DNA of 64,000 bases, taken from assembly GCF_000304475.1 (NCBI RefSeq), contig NC_018951.1, forward strand, positions 186,001-250,000, read 5' to 3'. Under the pieces are notes generated by a model. That model had not been told where the DNA came from. It saw only the letters and a program-made list of their open reading frames with translations, and did not search any database. Origin of the DNA: Kazachstania africana CBS 2517. Lineage: Eukaryota; Ascomycota; Saccharomycetes; Saccharomycetales; Saccharomycetaceae. Positions 1 through 29,360 of the stretch are shown here, piece after piece (position 1 is the stretch's first letter; the number at the start of each line of letters is the position of its first letter). The position numbers and the translations under genes are program-made.

Positions 1-948
1 AACCGTATAAGAATATACTTATATATACATGTAATTTGAAAAGAGCAAATCGCCACAACATCGTAGCCTTAATCAGTTAGCCCTGGATTGTTTTGAACAG
101 AAAATTGTTTCTACTTGATTAAATGCTGTGCTGTCCCTATTGCCCCAGCAACAAGCCTCTTGTGGCAACAAGGAAATGGTTGTATAGTTACCATACAAAA
201 CAACTGTTACAAATTTGTACATTTCATTAATGTATTGCGTTAATACCATATGTAGTCCTAAAACAGACATGCAACACAACGTTGCCGTTTCTACGAGATA
301 CCAAACCCATGTAACCACAGTAACCAGGTCCTAAACAGGAAAAAATCCCATGTTCTCTAGGAGTAGAAAGTCATGGAACGCGTAAACAGCACCTCACTCT
401 TTTCATTTCACGTGTCCTCATTCGTCTCAGACCACCTCGAATGGAATAATTATTTCTCACAAATTTTATGATCGATTTATTCTTTTACTAGTTTTGCATC
501 AACGGTTTCCATAGAAATCATAGTAGTAACCATGACGCGTGAAAGAATTTTAAAGGAGAAAAGAAGAAAAAAACTGACGCGTTTTTCTTCCCGCAACGGA
601 AGAAGAAATTTTGATTTGTAATGAGAGGAAGGCACTTTTGATGGGTGAGAAATTCGAAAGAGAATAAACTACTGTTTTGTTTACGCGTTTCGCGTCTGTT
701 TCTATGAAGTACTTCTACTGCATTTCTTAGTGATATTTACATTTACTAGGTGAAATTTTTTACTTTCTCTTTAGATACAAACTGGGAAACCAAAGAAAAA
801 AAAGATATATAAAGTATCAGGTTTATTTTATTAGTTTCGTTCTATTTTCCTTCTTTTCTTTATTTCAATATTCTTCTCCAATAGTTCTGCAAGTTCTTTA
901 AACGACAAGAGAACATTATCCATATATATTCCGTGTCACTTTTTTGCC
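1..948. other. Intergenic region upstream of the RNR-like gene
   Basis: No convincing gene is seen. The only long frame, on the minus strand at 73-318, has no recognisable domain. The proximal 600 bases hold four ACGCGT elements, listed separately. An 11/11 match to the S. cerevisiae origin consensus lies at 735-745, but in DNA this AT-rich that match alone is weak evidence for an origin. Confidence 0.6.
378..688. promoter_or_regulatory. Cluster of four MCB elements (ACGCGT)
   Basis: Perfect ACGCGT palindromes lie at 378-383, 535-540, 577-582 and 683-688, and a TTCGCG half-site follows the last. MCBs bind MBF (Mbp1/Swi6) and drive G1/S transcription of DNA synthesis genes; S. cerevisiae RNR1 is a classic target. 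Four copies within 310 bases of AT-rich DNA are very unlikely by chance, so S-phase expression of the downstream gene is inferred. Confidence 0.85.
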
Positions 949-3606
949 ATGTACGTTATAAAAAGAGACGGTCGTAAAGAACCAGTCAGATTCGATAAAA
1001 TCACCGCAAGAATTTCCCGTTTATGTTACGGTTTAGATCCTACTCATGTTGATGCTGTCAAAGTCACTCAACGTATCATCACAGGTGTCTACGAGGGTGT
1101 AACCACCAGTGAATTAGACAACTTAGCTGCTGAAACCTGTGCCTTCATGACTACTCTCCATCCAGATTATGGCCAGTTAGCTGCAAGATTAGCAATCTCG
1201 AACTTGCACAAACAAACTACGAAACAATTTTCTAAAGTTGTTGAAGATTTACACGCTTACGTAAACCCAAGGAATGGTAGACATGCTCCTTTGGTTTCTG
1301 AAGAACTTTTACAAATCGTCAAGGACCATAAAGATGAGATTAACTCTGCCATCGTTTACGACAGAGATTATCAATTCACATATTTCGGTTTTAAGGCTTT
1401 GGAACGTTCTTACCTTTTAAGACTAAACGGTGAAGTCGTCGAACGTCCACAACACTTGATCATGAGAGTTGCTTTAGGTATTCACGGTGATAACATTGAA
1501 GCCGCTATTGAAACTTATAACTTGATGTCTCTAAAATACTTTATTCACGGTTCTTCCACTTTATTCAACGCTGGTACTGTAAATTCTCAAATGTCCTCAA
1601 GTTATACAGTCGCTATGAAAGATGATTCTATCGAAGGTATTTATGACACATTAAAAGAATGTGCTTTAGTCTCAAAGAGCGCAGGTGGTATGGGTCTACA
1701 TGTTACTAATATTCGTAGTACAGGCTCTTATATCGCTGGTACTAACGGTACATCCAACGGTATTATTCCTATGGTTCGTGTCTACAACAACACTGCTCGT
1801 TTCGTTGACCAAGGTGGTAACAAGAGACCAGGTGCCGTCGCTATGTACATTGAACCATGGCACGCAGATATCTTTGATTTCATCGATGTCAAAAAGACAA
1901 GTGGTAAAGATGAAATTCGTGCTAGAGATTTACTACCAGCTTTATGGGTTCCTGATTTATTCATGCAACGTGTTCACGAAGATGGTGACTGGACTCTTTT
2001 CTCTCCAAGTGCTGCTCCAGGTTTAGTTGATGTCTATGGTGACGAATTCGATGCTTTATATACTCGTTACGAAAGAGAAGGTCGTGGTAAGACTATCAAG
2101 GCTCAAAAATTATGGTACTGTATATTAGAAGCTCAAAATGATTGTAGTGCTCCAATCATGGTCTACAAAGATCCTTGTAACAAGAAATCTAACCAAAAGA
2201 ACCTGGGTACTATCAAATCTTCTAATTTAAGTGGTGATGTTGTCGTTTACTCAGATGCTAAGGAAACTCCTGCCTCTAATATGGCTTCCCTTGCCTTACC
2301 TGCATTTATTGAAATCTCAGAAGATGGTAAGACTTCCACATATAACTTCAAGAAATTGCACGACATTACTAAGATTGTGACTCGTAACTTAAATGTAATC
2401 ATTGACCGTAACACGTACCCAGTTCCAGAAGCTAGAAGAGCCACTCTAAAACATAGACCAATTGCCATTGGTGTACAAGGTTTAGCTGATACTTTTATGA
2501 CTTTACGTTTGGCATTTGACTCCGCAGAAGCTCAATTATTAAATCAACAAATTTTCGAAACAATCTATCACGCTTCTCTAGAAGCTTCCGTAGAACTTGC
2601 CAAGAAGGATGGTCCATACCAGTCATTCAATGGTTCTCCAAGTTCAAGAGGTATCTTACAAATGGATCTTTGGGATGCTAAGCCGTCCGGTGTCTGGGAC
2701 TGGGATGCTTTAAGAAAGGATATTATGGAATACGGTTTAAGAAACTCTTTAACCACTGCTGCTATGCCAACTTCATCCACATCTCAAATCTTAGGTTACA
2801 CTGAATGCTTTGAACCTATTTCCTCCAACATGTACCAACATCGTGTCCTATCTGGTGAGTTCCAAGTCGTTAATCCATACTTGTTACGTGATTTAGTCGA
2901 TTTAGGTATCTGGGATGAAACTATGAAACAGCATATCGTCTCTCAAAATGGTTCTATTCAAGCCTTACCAAATGTTCCACAAGAATTAAAGGCTATATAT
3001 AAGACTGCTTGGGAAATCTCTCAGAAAAAGATTATTGACATGGCTACTGACCGTGCTATCTATATTGACCAATCTCAATCATTATCTTTATTCTTACGTG
3101 CTACTACTATGGGTAAGATTACTTCCATGCACTTTTACGGCTGGAATAAAGGTTTGAAAACTGGTATGTATAAACTAAACAGTCAACCTGTTGCTGCTGC
3201 TCCATTCTCTTCGGCTGCACAAGCAGCTAACAGTGTTGCTGATATAACCAAGCTAGAACGTCCAAGCTATGTTCCAACTACTGCTGAATTCACTGTGGCC
3301 GATTTTGTTCCACCAGCACAACCATTAAAAGAAATTCCAGTGACTCCAATTCCAGAAGAAGAAGAAATCGATGCTTTTGAAAATACCGGCCTAGACTCTT
3401 CCAGAAGTGTCTCTCCAGCACCTTCTGATGAATCTACCAAAATAGAAAGCCGTCCACTTGAACCAGTGGCTCTTCCATTACCAATTAAGAAGGATGTTAC
3501 TGAAATCGATGAGATCGAGGAAGAGAATGAATACGATATCTTTAATTCTAAAGCTATTGCATGTGCTATCGACAATCCAGAAGCTTGTGAAATGTGTTCT
3601 GGTTGA
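949..3606 (+). CDS. RNR1: Ribonucleotide reductase large-subunit paralog, predicted catalytically dead
   Basis: This is an 885-residue class Ia RNR alpha-subunit homolog; S. cerevisiae Rnr1 has 888. An ATP cone is at residues 1-90 with D57 kept. Specificity-site residues D226 and R256, loop 2 (Q288, R293) and the phosphate-binding MPTSSTSQ at 606-613 are kept, and the protein ends in a CxxC tail (C880, C883). The chemistry residues are not kept: 218, 428 and 443, cysteines in all active class I enzymes, are serine (codons AGT, AGT, TCT), E430 is aspartate, and the radical-transfer Tyr-Tyr pair is Y741-K742. N426 remains. Numbering is collinear with yeast Rnr1, so misalignment is unlikely. By neighbourhood (TDA2, VTC1, ALD5) it is the RNR1/YER070W position. 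The symbol is positional; nucleotide reduction is not expected from this protein alone. Four MCB sites precede it. Confidence 0.93.
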
Positions 3607-4102: not shown

Positions 4103-6523
4103 ATGTCTGGAACAGTTCAGAAGATATCTGAATTGATAAAAGATGACTTGTCATTAGAAAGGATACGCGAAATTAAAGAACAGTTGTTAAATCAAAAATC
4201 TACAATTGAATATCAATTGAACAAGGAATCTGAAAAGTACTATGGATACATACAAGACAGCTTAAACTTGCTGAACACTTCGCAGAAAGTTCTCGGATCC
4301 ATGAGAGATAGAATGCAAGATGTCAATAAATTAAGTGACGAAAATAAGACATCAATTGAAAGGTACGAAGTCATCTCTGATGCCACCAAACTTTATGAAA
4401 TGATTTCAAATACCTCCACGATATATGACAAAATAGTCAAGTTTGGATCAATCGTTGATCAATTGAATAATGCTCTGGACGAAGAACTCTCACAGGAAGT
4501 TATTGACTCTGGTTGCCCTTACTTACTACAAATTCACTATTTACTCACTTTAGCTCGTGATTTCCAAGATCAAATGACTGTGATGGCCCGTGTTTCTACG
4601 GACGACGTTCAAAGAACGGTAGCTAAACTTTTCGGTGGACTCACAGAAGTGATCAATAAATTTGACCAATTATTAGAAAATATAATCTACGATATAGTAG
4701 AGATTGCAAGATCAGATCAAACATCATTGGCTGTTCGTTTTTTCAAAGTTATCAATATTGAAGAAAAGGAAGATCTAAAGATCATCGCAATTAGAAATAT
4801 TATTAAGAAGAAAGAAATGGAAGCTGAAAAATCATCAATGAAGAAACTTCCCAACAGCACAAATACAGCTAGGTTAATGGGAAACAAAAATTTGACCGAG
4901 GCTGATTATCCAACCTACTACGGTCTCTATCAAGAAATACTGAATGGCACCATTTCCACTAGAACCCTACCCAGAGGTTATAAGAACTTTTTTTTCAACA
5001 AAATGAAACAATCAATCCAAGATATGTTTGTAGAAGTTAGAGAAACTTATCAGGGGGATAAAAAATTCGATATTTTGAATGAATCTGATTGGATCTTTAG
5101 AGAGTTATTGGTTGTTAAAGAAAAACTGGCGTTATGTGGACCAGAACCTTGGAATTTGGTCAGTAAAGTCTTTGAGTTTTTCTATGAAGAATTGCATATT
5201 CTAATTACAGAACTCGTTGAATCTGAACCAGAAACAATTGTTATCTTGGATATTCTTCACTTTGACAAGACATTCAAAAAGACTTTAATAGATGTTTTGG
5301 GGTTCAAGAAATCAGAGGCTAAAAGCATCATAGGTGATGAACAGAAAGAAGCGCTTTTCAAGGACTACTCGAACTTATTAGTTGTTAAAATGACTGAATG
5401 GTTCAAAAATCTGGAAAAAGCAGAATTTGAAGCGTTCCTTGAGAGGACTATACCGCCACATACTGATCCAGATGGATTATTATTTTTAGATGGTACCAAG
5501 ACATGCTTTCAAATGTTTACACAACAAGTTGAAGTTGCGGCAGGTTCACAACAGGCGAAAATCCTAACTGGTGTCATTGAGAAGTTTGTAGATCTACTAA
5601 TTAATCGTCAACAGCATTGGTCCTCCATTATTGACAAAGAAGTCGACAAAATACTTAAGTACAACGAATTATATGACATAGATCCTGCTAATATCCCCCC
5701 TGAGGCAGATGTACCAGGTGGGCTAGTGGAATATTTGATTGCCACAGCAAATGATCAAATGAGAGCTGCTGATTATTCCGTTGCAATTTCTCATAAATAC
5801 GGAGAAATGGTAAGCAAAATGTATTCAAAGGAGATTTCGAACAATATAGAACGTGCATTAGACGGTTTTGCTGATGTTGTCAGATCCTGTACCAGTGGAT
5901 TGCTTTCGATTATATTTGATGACCTAAAGACACCATATTCCGAAATATTTAGCAAAGCTTGGTACAATGGAAGTCAAGTCCAACAAATTACAGATACATT
6001 GTATGAATACCTGGTTGATATAAAGGGACAAATGAGTCCCGTGGTTTTCATACTGTTTATTGGTAGTGTCATTGACGAGACCTTTTTCAACTTCGTACAG
6101 GCATTGAATTTTGAACACTCTTTCAAGAGCAAAAATAACAAGTTTTTGGAGGCAATGAAGAGAGACTTTGAATTATTCTTCAGTTTATTCACAAAGTTCA
6201 TAACAGAGGATCAAAAAGTGGAAGTCATTGATAGGAGGTTCAGAGTTATGGAATATTTCATGGATTTAACATGTGAACCAGTAGATGAAATAGTAGCCAC
6301 ATGGAGGGACTTGATACTTGATTACCCAGAGACGCCAATTGATTTCCTAGACGCAGTTTTAACCTGCAGAAAGGATGTTGACAGTTCTCAAAGAAAGCAT
6401 ATGATACAAATGGGCATGAAATATATCAATTCCCCCGAACGAAGGGCACACCTTCAACAGCTAACGATGGATCCATCCTTCATTTCACGGTTTAGATTGT
6501 CGAAAAAATCTCGAAAGATATAG
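4103..6523 (+). CDS. SEC6: Exocyst complex subunit Sec6
   Basis: This is a subunit of the octameric exocyst, which tethers Golgi-derived secretory vesicles to the plasma membrane at sites of growth. The protein is helical throughout, with an N-terminal coiled-coil region at about residues 20-60 (KEQLLNQKSTIEYQLNKES) and the conserved core block DGLLFLDGTKTCFQMFTQQV. The frame opens at 4082, but the Met at 4103 (MSGTVQKISELIKDDL) matches where the S. cerevisiae protein begins. It gives 806 residues against 805, so I use it. In S. cerevisiae SEC6 lies on chromosome IX near RNR3, not near RNR1. Its position here, between an RNR1-type gene and TDA2, is informative about duplicate sorting. Confidence 0.96.
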   Translation: MSGTVQKISELIKDDLSLERIREIKEQLLNQKSTIEYQLNKESEKYYGYIQDSLNLLNTSQKVLGSMRDRMQDVNKLSDENKTSIERYEVISDATKLYEMISNTSTIYDKIVKFGSIVDQLNNALDEELSQEVIDSGCPYLLQIHYLLTLARDFQDQMTVMARVSTDDVQRTVAKLFGGLTEVINKFDQLLENIIYDIVEIARSDQTSLAVRFFKVINIEEKEDLKIIAIRNIIKKKEMEAEKSSMKKLPNSTNTARLMGNKNLTEADYPTYYGLYQEILNGTISTRTLPRGYKNFFFNKMKQSIQDMFVEVRETYQGDKKFDILNESDWIFRELLVVKEKLALCGPEPWNLVSKVFEFFYEELHILITELVESEPETIVILDILHFDKTFKKTLIDVLGFKKSEAKSIIGDEQKEALFKDYSNLLVVKMTEWFKNLEKAEFEAFLERTIPPHTDPDGLLFLDGTKTCFQMFTQQVEVAAGSQQAKILTGVIEKFVDLLINRQQHWSSIIDKEVDKILKYNELYDIDPANIPPEADVPGGLVEYLIATANDQMRAADYSVAISHKYGEMVSKMYSKEISNNIERALDGFADVVRSCTSGLLSIIFDDLKTPYSEIFSKAWYNGSQVQQITDTLYEYLVDIKGQMSPVVFILFIGSVIDETFFNFVQALNFEHSFKSKNNKFLEAMKRDFELFFSLFTKFITEDQKVEVIDRRFRVMEYFMDLTCEPVDEIVATWRDLILDYPETPIDFLDAVLTCRKDVDSSQRKHMIQMGMKYINSPERRAHLQQLTMDPSFISRFRLSKKSRKI

Positions 6524-15402: not shown

Positions 15403-16337
15403 GCTAGAAGGAGGCTTTCTATTTCCTTTGAAGGTATTAGTGTTTGATATTATGTGGTTAATTTGCTATGTCAACGAATGTGTGTCTTTAGAGTCCTTTG
15501 GAATGTCGATGTCTTTTGAAACAATCGTCGAGATGAGAAAGAAGTGTACGCTAATTTTGGAAGATCTTAAAAAAGTAACGACGGGCCGTAGCGAAAAATG
15601 TCCAGAAAAAGTCGATTTCTGAAAAATAGGTGGAAACAGGAAATAGTGGATGAGCCGGTCGAATTCAGCAGTGTTTGGGCAGCGAAGTAACGATTCCAAC
15701 CGCGTGCGATGCTTGCAGGTGAGAGTGTGCTGCGTTGGTGAGATGTTATTTGATTATATATACAGTTGAATAGGCGGGAAAGGGAAGATCTTGAGTGTAG
15801 ATAATTGCTGTTGCAGAGTATTATTGTATGCATTCTATGCAAGATAAGATTCTGGACAAGAAAGAAATTGACGCATGCTGCTCAGTCAAAGGTCTGGTTT
15901 ATTGAGGATGACTTGCAGGGTCCGGGATCCGGTAGAAATGGCTTCTTTTTTCTGTTTTTTTTTTTCGAGTTTCCACCGTTTGTCGTGGTTGCAAGAGCTG
16001 CATGATAGATAGTACGGTACCATCCGATTAAATTGAACGTCTATGGGCACGTGCTATGCTGGAAGTTCGACTCGACACAGTGAATGGAGCATCTTTCTGG
16101 TGCCACTGTTGGAAACAATACTTGCTAAGGTGCATCCAGAATGGTAGCAGTGCCAGTACCAATGCTTGCATATCACACAGTTTGCCATCTTTCATTCTTG
16201 CTCAGAGGAGATATTTGATTGGGCAAAGCTGCTGTCGAAAAAACGAAAAACCACACGTCATTCATTTTATTTTTGGCAACTTGCAACGAAGATGCGGCTG
16301 TACCTCACTGGTAAGGTAAAGTGTTTAAAAAGTAAAT
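15403..16337. other. Intergenic region between PTP3 and tRNA-Ala
   Basis: About 935 bases with several short overlapping frames (for example 15567-15842 and 16056-16319), none resembling a known protein. A palindromic GCACGTGC is at 16047-16054, a bHLH-type (Cbf1/Tye7) word. S. cerevisiae carries YER076C around this position; I see no recognisable remnant. Confidence 0.45.
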
Positions 16338-16410
16338 TGGACGCAACCGGAATCGAACCGATGACCTCTTCCTTGCAAGGGAAGCGCGCTACCAACTGCG
16401 CCATGTGCCC
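16338..16410 (-). tRNA. tRNA-Ala (UGC)
   Basis: The 73-base gene is read on the minus strand from GGGCACATGG (16410) to the discriminator A at 16338. The anticodon TGC is at 16375-16377, the B box GGTTCGATTCC is perfect, and there is no intron. The alanine identity pair G3-U70 is present. The complementary T5 run just downstream (forward A5 at 16327-16331) is a Pol III terminator. It appears identical to the S. cerevisiae tA(UGC) family. Confidence 0.97.
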
Positions 16411-16560
16411 ATGTAGATTTTGTAGCGTAAAATTCATGTTTTTTTATAAGCACGATATCAAATTGTCCACCCCACTTCAGCATGCCACTGTAGAAATATA
16501 TCCAGAATGAATGCATGTAGTTGAGTATCTCTGTATTTACAAGGTTTATATTAGGTTTAT

Positions 16561-29286: not shown

Positions 29287-29360
29287 TGGTCTCTAGCGGG
29301 ATCGAACCGCTGATCCCCGCGTTATTAGCACGGTGCCTTAACCAACTGGGCCAAGAGACC
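29287..29360 (-). tRNA. tRNA-Ile (AAU)
   Basis: A 74-base gene on the minus strand, from GGTCTCTTGGCCC at 29360 to the discriminator A at 29287. The anticodon AAT is at 29324-29326. Both A box (TGGCCCAGTTGG) and B box (GGTTCGATCCC) are intact, and the gene has no intron. A T6 terminator follows directly (forward A6 at 29281-29286). It matches the S. cerevisiae tI(AAU) family. Confidence 0.97.

What the first reader, a model, noticed from the sequence alone, without database searches (positions are those of the whole stretch)
949..3606. Ribonucleotide reductase large subunit with every catalytic cysteine replaced: a probable RNR pseudoenzyme
Seen directly: codons for residues 218 (AGT, 1600-1602), 428 (AGT, 2230-2232) and 443 (TCT at 2275-2277) encode serine in an otherwise highly conserved, uninterrupted 885-residue frame, and E430 is aspartate (GAT). 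Established: in class I RNR alpha subunits these cysteines are invariant. C428 forms the thiyl radical and C218/C443 are the redox pair, and serine cannot replace them. A random pseudogene would show scattered damage, frameshifts and stops. Here damage is concentrated on chemistry, while D57 (ATP cone), D226, R256, Q288, R293 and the phosphate-binding loop persist. This suggests selection for a non-catalytic role such as allosteric partner, assembly decoy or regulator of the active enzyme. Loss of catalysis with retention of fold is known for some herpesvirus R1 homologs, but I know of no description in yeast.
Basis: partly seen in the sequence, partly recalled or inferred. Interest (0 to 1): 0.95.

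Follow-up and report, generated by a model that had tools for sequence, protein, structure and literature searches.

The report
Reductase split between two paralogs
In the yeast Kazachstania africana one copy of the enzyme that makes DNA building blocks has lost its reaction centre but kept its recharging arm, while the two other copies have kept the reaction centre and lost the arm, so the working enzyme is most likely an obligatory partnership of the two kinds.

Summary
The window gene (949-3606, +, 885 aa) is an RNR1-type large subunit of Kazachstania africana CBS 2517. C218, C428 and C443 are serine and E430 is aspartate. Of 138 aligned alphas only this one lacks the catalytic set.

The genome searches find two other alphas, a tandem RNR3 pair. 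Both keep the catalytic set and lack the CxxC arm, with no cysteine after residue 745. So none of the three is complete, and the missing parts are complementary. In class I RNR the arm of one monomer is reported to re-reduce its neighbour's active site.

A second reciprocity fits: effector-binding loop 1 is intact in the window protein and eroded in both RNR3 copies (RNR3 cluster at 246-290: 0 of 5000 shuffles; weaker with literature-defined residues). Omega about 0.13, high codon bias and shared MCB-type promoter sites argue against decay.

Best reading: an obligate alpha/alpha-prime RNR in which RNR3 does the chemistry and the window protein supplies arm and effector site in trans. The mechanism is inferred; no bench data.

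The parts
949..3606 (+). RNR1-type large subunit without catalytic residues (Rnr1*, 885 aa)
   Evidence: Open frame; Pfam ATP-cone, lgN, lgC; end-to-end match to S. cerevisiae Rnr1
949..1215 (+). ATP cone (activity site), residues 1-89
   Evidence: Pfam match 1-89; 2 of 62 conserved positions in residues 1-91 changed
1600..1602 (+). C218S (redox pair lost), AGT
1711..1761 (+). Loop 1 of the specificity site (residues 255-271), intact here, eroded in RNR3a/b
   Evidence: loop limits from PMC5819950 section 10
1804..1833 (+). Loop 2 (residues 286-295), intact
2230..2232 (+). C428S (thiyl-radical cysteine lost), AGT
2236..2238 (+). E430D, GAT
2275..2277 (+). C443S (redox pair lost), TCT
3172..3174 (+). 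Y742K (second tyrosine of the radical-transfer pair lost), AAA
3586..3597 (+). C-terminal CxxC arm (C880, C883), intact
378..688 (.). Promoter stretch with four ACGCGT (MCB-type) sites at 378, 535, 577, 683
   Evidence: meaning of the site recalled

Best explanation
K. africana makes deoxyribonucleotides with an obligate alpha/alpha-prime ribonucleotide reductase. RNR3a/b is the catalytic alpha: it takes the radical through Y742-Y741 to C428, reduces the substrate and ends with a C218-C443 disulfide, but has no arm to reopen that disulfide. The window protein Rnr1* is the dead alpha-prime. In the heterodimer its C-terminal CxxC arm swings into the neighbouring RNR3 active site, reduces the disulfide and is recharged by thioredoxin or glutaredoxin; its intact loop 1 holds the specificity effector that sets loop 2 of the RNR3 site. 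Rnr1* homodimers cannot do the chemistry; RNR3 homodimers should stall after about one turnover. Shown here: the reciprocal presence and absence of these parts, purifying selection, shared promoter sites. From published work on other species: arm action on the adjacent subunit, effector contact with the neighbour's loop 1, Rnr1-Rnr3 heterodimers, Rnr1 stimulating Rnr3. Inferred: that this heterodimer forms and is obligatory in K. africana. Inferred order: RNR3 lost its arm once, in an ancestor shared with Naumovozyma dairenensis, and came to depend on Rnr1; in the K. africana line Rnr1 then lost its dispensable chemistry, RNR3 loop 1 was freed to drift, and RNR3 duplicated.
For: (1) Three alphas found in the genome, with the protein and with PF02867 at E up to 1. 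(2) Both RNR3 copies read C/C/E/C/Y/Y, with no terminal CxxC and no Cys after residue 745; the window protein reads S/S/D/S/Y/K and keeps CxxC. (3) Arm loss in RNR3 is one clade, support 99/98, holding 15 of 15 arm-less rows of a 48-row tree; in 4 of 4 named other species of that clade for which both genes were listed, RNR1 has the arm and RNR3 does not. (4) Reciprocal erosion: conserved positions changed in S-site 242-284 / active-site strands are 1/29 in Rnr1*, 11/3 in RNR3a, 8/3 in RNR3b; a scan free of chosen regions puts the RNR3 excess at 246-290, 0 of 5000 label shuffles. (5) Omega 0.126 on the Rnr1* branch; neutrality costs 97 log units. (6) Codon bias 0.656, above the 22 other window ORFs scored. 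(7) 4, 3 and 4 ACGCGT sites in the three alpha promoters. (8) Papers, by passages or one section: arm of the adjacent R1 enters the site (PMC3618301); effector touches loop 1 of the neighbouring subunit (PMC5819950 section 10); [quoted passage not shown] Rnr1-Rnr3 heterodimers (PMC4245953).
Against: Loop 2 of Rnr1* should be free to drift and is intact (0 of 10), while each RNR3 has one loop 2 change, D287T or K292R. With residue sets taken from the structure paper the reciprocity is weaker, Fisher p 0.015 for RNR3a and 0.083 for RNR3b. The clustering of Rnr1* changes is not significant in the free scan (p 0.22). In S. cerevisiae, expressing catalytically dead Rnr1-C428A in an rnr1 crt1 double deletion, where Rnr3 is made, did not restore telomere length (PMC5673236 passages), so a dead Rnr1 does not there replace all of Rnr1's work. 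Arm-less RNR3s may be reduced in another way. The omega of the Rnr1* branch does not differ notably from that of RNR3 (lnL gain 1.3). One assembly; no expression, interaction or activity data for K. africana.
Confidence: 0.74

Rival explanations
1. Allosteric partner only: Rnr1* forms heterodimers with RNR3 and activates it through its ATP cone and effector site, but its arm is not needed; RNR3 is reduced directly by thioredoxin, glutaredoxin or small thiols.
For: Rnr1 is reported to stimulate Rnr3 by cross-talk from the activity site of Rnr1 to the Rnr3 catalytic site (PMC5673236 passages); the ATP cone is well kept (2 of 62 conserved positions changed) and loop 1 is intact; other species also have arm-less RNR3 with an intact catalytic set.
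Against: Does not explain why the arm is kept, last 16 residues identical to S. cerevisiae Rnr1, on a long end branch, nor why it is the very part that RNR3a/b lack.
Confidence: 0.15
2. A role unrelated to nucleotide reduction (moonlighting protein), as for inactive betaherpesvirus R1 proteins.
For: Betaherpesvirus RNR has lost activity and serves other ends (PMC11772975, start of abstract in the listing); a dead rnr3-C428A allele rescued an S. cerevisiae rnr3 growth defect, which its authors read as a dNTP-independent function (PMC6545439 passages).
Against: The arm, loop 1, loop 2 and ATP cone are all kept, the promoter keeps ACGCGT sites like those of RNR3a/b, and the defects of the three paralogs match each other.
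Confidence: 0.06
3. Ordinary decay of a redundant copy (pseudogene or near-pseudogene).
For: Long end branch 0.72; 50 of 448 conserved positions changed.
Against: Omega 0.126 with neutrality rejected by 97 log units; open frame of 885 codons; highest codon bias of the 23 window ORFs scored; arm and loop 1 intact; the other two alphas cannot replace its arm.
Confidence: 0.03
4. Sequencing or assembly artefact.
For: One assembly only; no reads or second strain were available.
Against: The changes are many and spread over the frame (50 of 448 conserved positions), with an open frame throughout and the expected upstream neighbours.
Confidence: 0.02

Closest known systems
S. cerevisiae Rnr1/Rnr3 class Ia RNR
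   Same: Homologous genes; Rnr1-Rnr3 heterodimers and stimulation of Rnr3 by Rnr1 are reported (passages)
   Different: In S. cerevisiae both paralogs have the full catalytic set and a CxxC arm (P0011, P0031); here each lacks what the other has
Rnr4, the small subunit without its own radical (beta-prime) of yeast RNR
   Same: A duplicated RNR subunit that lost chemistry and stays as partner of the active paralog (recalled); K. africana has Rnr2- and Rnr4-type genes
   Different: Small subunit; here the large subunit would have done the same, giving an enzyme with one live and one dead partner in each half
Laboratory complementation in trans between arm-less and active-site-dead R1 (Zhang et al. 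2007 PNAS) and Rnr1/Rnr3 cross-talk (Domkin et al. 2002 JBC)
   Same: The same division of labour studied with made mutants in S. cerevisiae (content recalled; only titles and citing passages seen; the papers are not held)
   Different: Here it is the natural state of a genome and, as far as the searches show, the only one it has
Inactive betaherpesvirus R1 homologs
   Same: RNR large-subunit homologs that lost activity (listing)
   Different: Viral proteins with other roles; not a model for this case

Membership tests
Class Ia RNR alpha (catalytic) subunit | Thiyl cysteine, redox cysteine pair, catalytic Glu, radical-transfer Tyr pair | tested here: not met
   S/S/D/S and Y-K instead of C/C/E/C and Y-Y; 137 of 137 others aligned keep them
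Class Ia RNR alpha (catalytic) subunit | ATP cone, lgN and lgC domains, full-length homology | tested here: met
Class Ia RNR alpha (catalytic) subunit | C-terminal CxxC | tested here: met
RNR1 ortholog group | Tree position | tested here: inconclusive
   Outside the RNR3 clade (support 91/96), but in an unresolved fork (88/98) that holds both RNR1 rows of Naumovozyma/Kazachstania and that RNR3 clade; long branch
RNR1 ortholog group | Gene neighbourhood | tested here: met
   ARG5,6-type gene directly upstream, then U1-70K-type, RING/RRM and RGI1 genes; that ARG5,6 adjoins RNR1 in S. cerevisiae is recalled
Pseudoenzyme | Catalytic residues lost in a gene under purifying selection | tested here: met
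Pseudoenzyme | No catalytic activity | not testable with these tools
   Needs an assay
Obligate heteromeric (split) RNR | Complementary loss of parts among the only paralogs found in the genome | tested here: met
Obligate heteromeric (split) RNR | Physical heterodimer, turnover dependent on the partner | not testable with these tools
   Needs bench work

The most novel reading that the evidence does not exclude
A natural, obligate split ribonucleotide reductase: the catalytic cycle is divided between two paralogous alpha polypeptides, neither complete, with chemistry in one and the regeneration arm plus effector pocket in the other. With Rnr2/Rnr4 this would be a doubly heterodimeric enzyme, half dead on each side, reached through successive complementary losses.
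Probability: 0.7. Interest if true: 0.92.

Novelty: new variant of a known kind. Interest (0 to 1): 0.88.

Why it matters
RNR is essential and its large subunit is highly conserved. A species in which no alpha polypeptide is complete would be natural evidence that the arm works in trans and that an effector held by one subunit governs the site of the other. It would be a clear case of complementary degeneration after gene duplication locking two paralogs into one enzyme, and it offers a ready half-site system for measuring trans-reduction, half-site reactivity and allosteric communication without engineered mutants.

Tried and rejected
Pseudogene decay: rejected on omega, open frame and codon bias. 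Decoy or unrelated role: kept as a minor rival, since it leaves the matched defects unexplained. A fourth alpha: none found with the protein or with PF02867 at E up to 1; the tool warns that only the best candidates are scored. A hidden arm of the RNR3 genes in another frame: three frames of 600 bases downstream of each gene held one CxxC-type match each, without the flanking arm motif.

Structure prediction: the window protein with 40 aligned sequences gave mean pLDDT 57.3. The control, S. cerevisiae Rnr1 with the same 40 sequences, gave 55.9 although its structure is solved, so the alignment was too shallow; neither model was used and no fold search was made.

Limits of the tests. The regions were chosen after seeing the changes. 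One search repeats the comparison with residue sets taken from PMC5819950, mapped to yeast numbering by me (p 0.015 and 0.083). One search scans without chosen regions (RNR3 cluster 0 of 5000, Rnr1* cluster p 0.22). The other rows belong to the background, so their low counts are partly built in. Omega rests on three genes, and the Rnr1* branch includes the path to the RNR3a/b ancestor. Codon bias used a recalled S. cerevisiae list of preferred codons and 22 of the 36 other ORFs; short or overlapping ones were left out.

A separate search for sister species with the same dead site was not run; one protein search was left unused. Among the 119 other proteins listed none lacks the three cysteines. 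The paper search on paralog heteromers found 0 papers.

Full report
What is there. The frame 949-3606 (+) encodes 885 residues with ATP-cone, lgN and lgC domains and aligns end to end with S. cerevisiae Rnr1. The window lies on contig C12 of an 11.13 Mb, 12-contig genome. Contig C2 is 1485491 bases long, the contig length listed for KAFR_0B01360 and KAFR_0B01350 of Kazachstania africana CBS 2517, and the protein read from C2 equals P0120 letter for letter. So the organism is K. africana.

The observation. C218S, C428S, C443S and E430D are at the stated codons. Y742K is a further loss. Among 138 aligned alphas (all hits listed, both capped lists), 137 keep C218/C428/E430/C443/Y741/Y742 and the window protein is the single exception. 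The human structure paper states that both tyrosines of the pair are essential for radical transfer (PMC5819950 section 10; the mapping from human 737/738 to yeast 741/742 is mine). The protein keeps the C-terminal CxxC, and its last 16 residues equal those of S. cerevisiae Rnr1. So the chemistry is lost and the reducing arm is kept.

The rest of the genome. Searches with the protein and with PF02867 find three alphas. The other two are tandem on C2, at 254784-257321 (RNR3a, 845 aa) and 251149-253692 (RNR3b, 847 aa). Both keep the catalytic set, both lack the terminal CxxC, and neither has a cysteine after residue 745. None of the three alphas is complete. Rnr2- and Rnr4-type small subunits are present, one each.

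History. In a 48-row tree the 15 arm-less rows form one clade (99/98): Naumovozyma dairenensis and Kazachstania in the wide sense. The window protein lies outside the RNR3 clade (91/96), in an unresolved fork (88/98) together with RNR1 rows of Naumovozyma and Kazachstania and that RNR3 clade, with an end branch of 0.72, the longest of the tree. Its place as RNR1 therefore rests also on its neighbours: an ARG5,6-type protein directly upstream, then U1-70K-type, RING/RRM and RGI1 genes, whereas FIS1, a methyltransferase, an LCCL-domain protein and MAM33 surround RNR3a/b (S. cerevisiae gene order recalled). S. cerevisiae Rnr3 keeps the arm (P0031). In 4 of 4 named other species of the arm-less clade for which both genes were listed (Arxiozyma heterogenica, Monosporozyma unispora, M. 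servazzii, Huiozyma naganishii) RNR1 has the arm and RNR3 does not, and both are catalytically intact. Of the 138 proteins 18 lack a terminal CxxC: 17 of this RNR3 group, and P0124 of Spathaspora, whose odd end looks to me like a frame error.

A second reciprocity. Human alpha binds the specificity effector between loop 2 and loop 1 of the neighbouring subunit (PMC5819950 section 10). If the active site is always RNR3's, the loop 1 that matters is that of Rnr1*. Rnr1* loop 1 is unchanged from the consensus. At conserved loop 1 positions RNR3a has T258S, G259D, S269A and N270K, and RNR3b has A263Q and N270K; at less conserved ones both have S257G and RNR3a has T268K. Over residues 242-284 against active-site strands, changes at conserved positions are 1/29 in Rnr1*, 11/3 in RNR3a and 8/3 in RNR3b (Fisher 5e-7 and 1.4e-5, regions chosen after the fact). 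With literature sets p is 0.015 and 0.083. In a scan free of chosen regions the RNR3 excess at 246-290 is reached in 0 of 5000 shuffles, while the Rnr1* excess at 396-440 is not significant by itself (0.22). Of the 15 other arm-less RNR3s, 10 were listed: 8 have no change in 242-284 and 2 have one (they are part of the background). N270K, I273M, M275V and N281T are shared by RNR3a and RNR3b, so this drift probably began before the duplication. Against the model, loop 2 of Rnr1* is intact although it should be free, and each RNR3 has one loop 2 change.

Selection and expression. A three-gene codon model gives omega 0.126 for the Rnr1* branch and 0.091 for RNR3, which is not a notable difference (lnL gain 1.3); fixing Rnr1* at 1 costs 97 log units. 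Codon bias of the window gene is 0.656, above the 22 other window ORFs scored (highest 0.645) and close to RNR3a and RNR3b (0.624, 0.642). The three alpha promoters hold 4, 3 and 4 ACGCGT sites within 700 bp; window positions 3607-64000 hold 2, and the upstream stretches of RNR2 (829 bp) and RNR4 (636 bp) hold none. RNR3a and RNR3b carry sites close to the recalled X-box consensus (GTTGCCATGGCAAG, GTTGCCATGCTAAC); looser matches also occur before RNR1* and RNR4. What MCB and X-box sites do is recalled. This fits co-expression of the three genes.

Mechanism. [quoted passage not shown] its reference list holds Zhang et al. 2007, itself not held. PMC3483043 (section 7) describes regeneration of the site through the C-terminal CXXC and thioredoxin or glutaredoxin. 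PMC5673236 (passages), citing Domkin et al. [quoted passage not shown] PMC4245953 (passages) states that Rnr1-Rnr3 heterodimers form under DNA-damaging conditions. Put together, a K. africana heterodimer has all the parts of one working site and neither homodimer does. That it forms and is required is inference. One published result points the other way: dead Rnr1-C428A did not restore telomere length in S. cerevisiae cells that live on Rnr3 (PMC5673236).

Known or new. Judged by titles and abstract starts, no paper listed in searches describes this (search 59 listed none). The one paper found that holds both 'Kazachstania africana' and 'ribonucleotide reductase' concerns Hug1 (PMC4245953). 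Papers outside the held library were not searched. The enzyme class is known; the natural division of its cycle between incomplete alpha paralogs is, as far as seen here, new.

Noticed in passing
L011 (C2:251001-259000): RNR3 is a tandem pair (KAFR_0B01350/01360) whose promoters carry clustered ACGCGT sites and X-box-like sites, which suggests that RNR3 took on S-phase regulation.
   Followed up: partly
P0084 (Huiozyma naganishii RNR3), last 9 residues: Ends EEGCEVTSQ, which looks like an eroded PEACEMCSG with one cysteine left; the arm may have decayed by substitutions in some species.
   Followed up: no
P0068, P0069, P0072, P0073, P0081 C-termini: These arm-less RNR3s share a conserved new ending GISC[AT]ERDN, possibly a new signal.
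   Followed up: no
L014 (C4:351000-353200): K. africana Rnr4 scores much lower against its S. cerevisiae counterpart (408 bits) than Rnr2 does (684 bits).
   Followed up: no
window 4103-6523: A Sec6 gene lies directly downstream of RNR1* while an ARG5,6-type gene lies upstream; in S. cerevisiae (recalled) these belong to the RNR3 and the RNR1 side of the duplicated tracks.
   Followed up: partly
P0124 (Spathaspora passalidarum): Predicted protein without CxxC whose odd ending looks like a frame error rather than a true loss.
   Followed up: no
window 16337-16411 and 29287-29360 (-): Two tRNA genes, Ala (TGC) and Ile (AAT).
   Followed up: no
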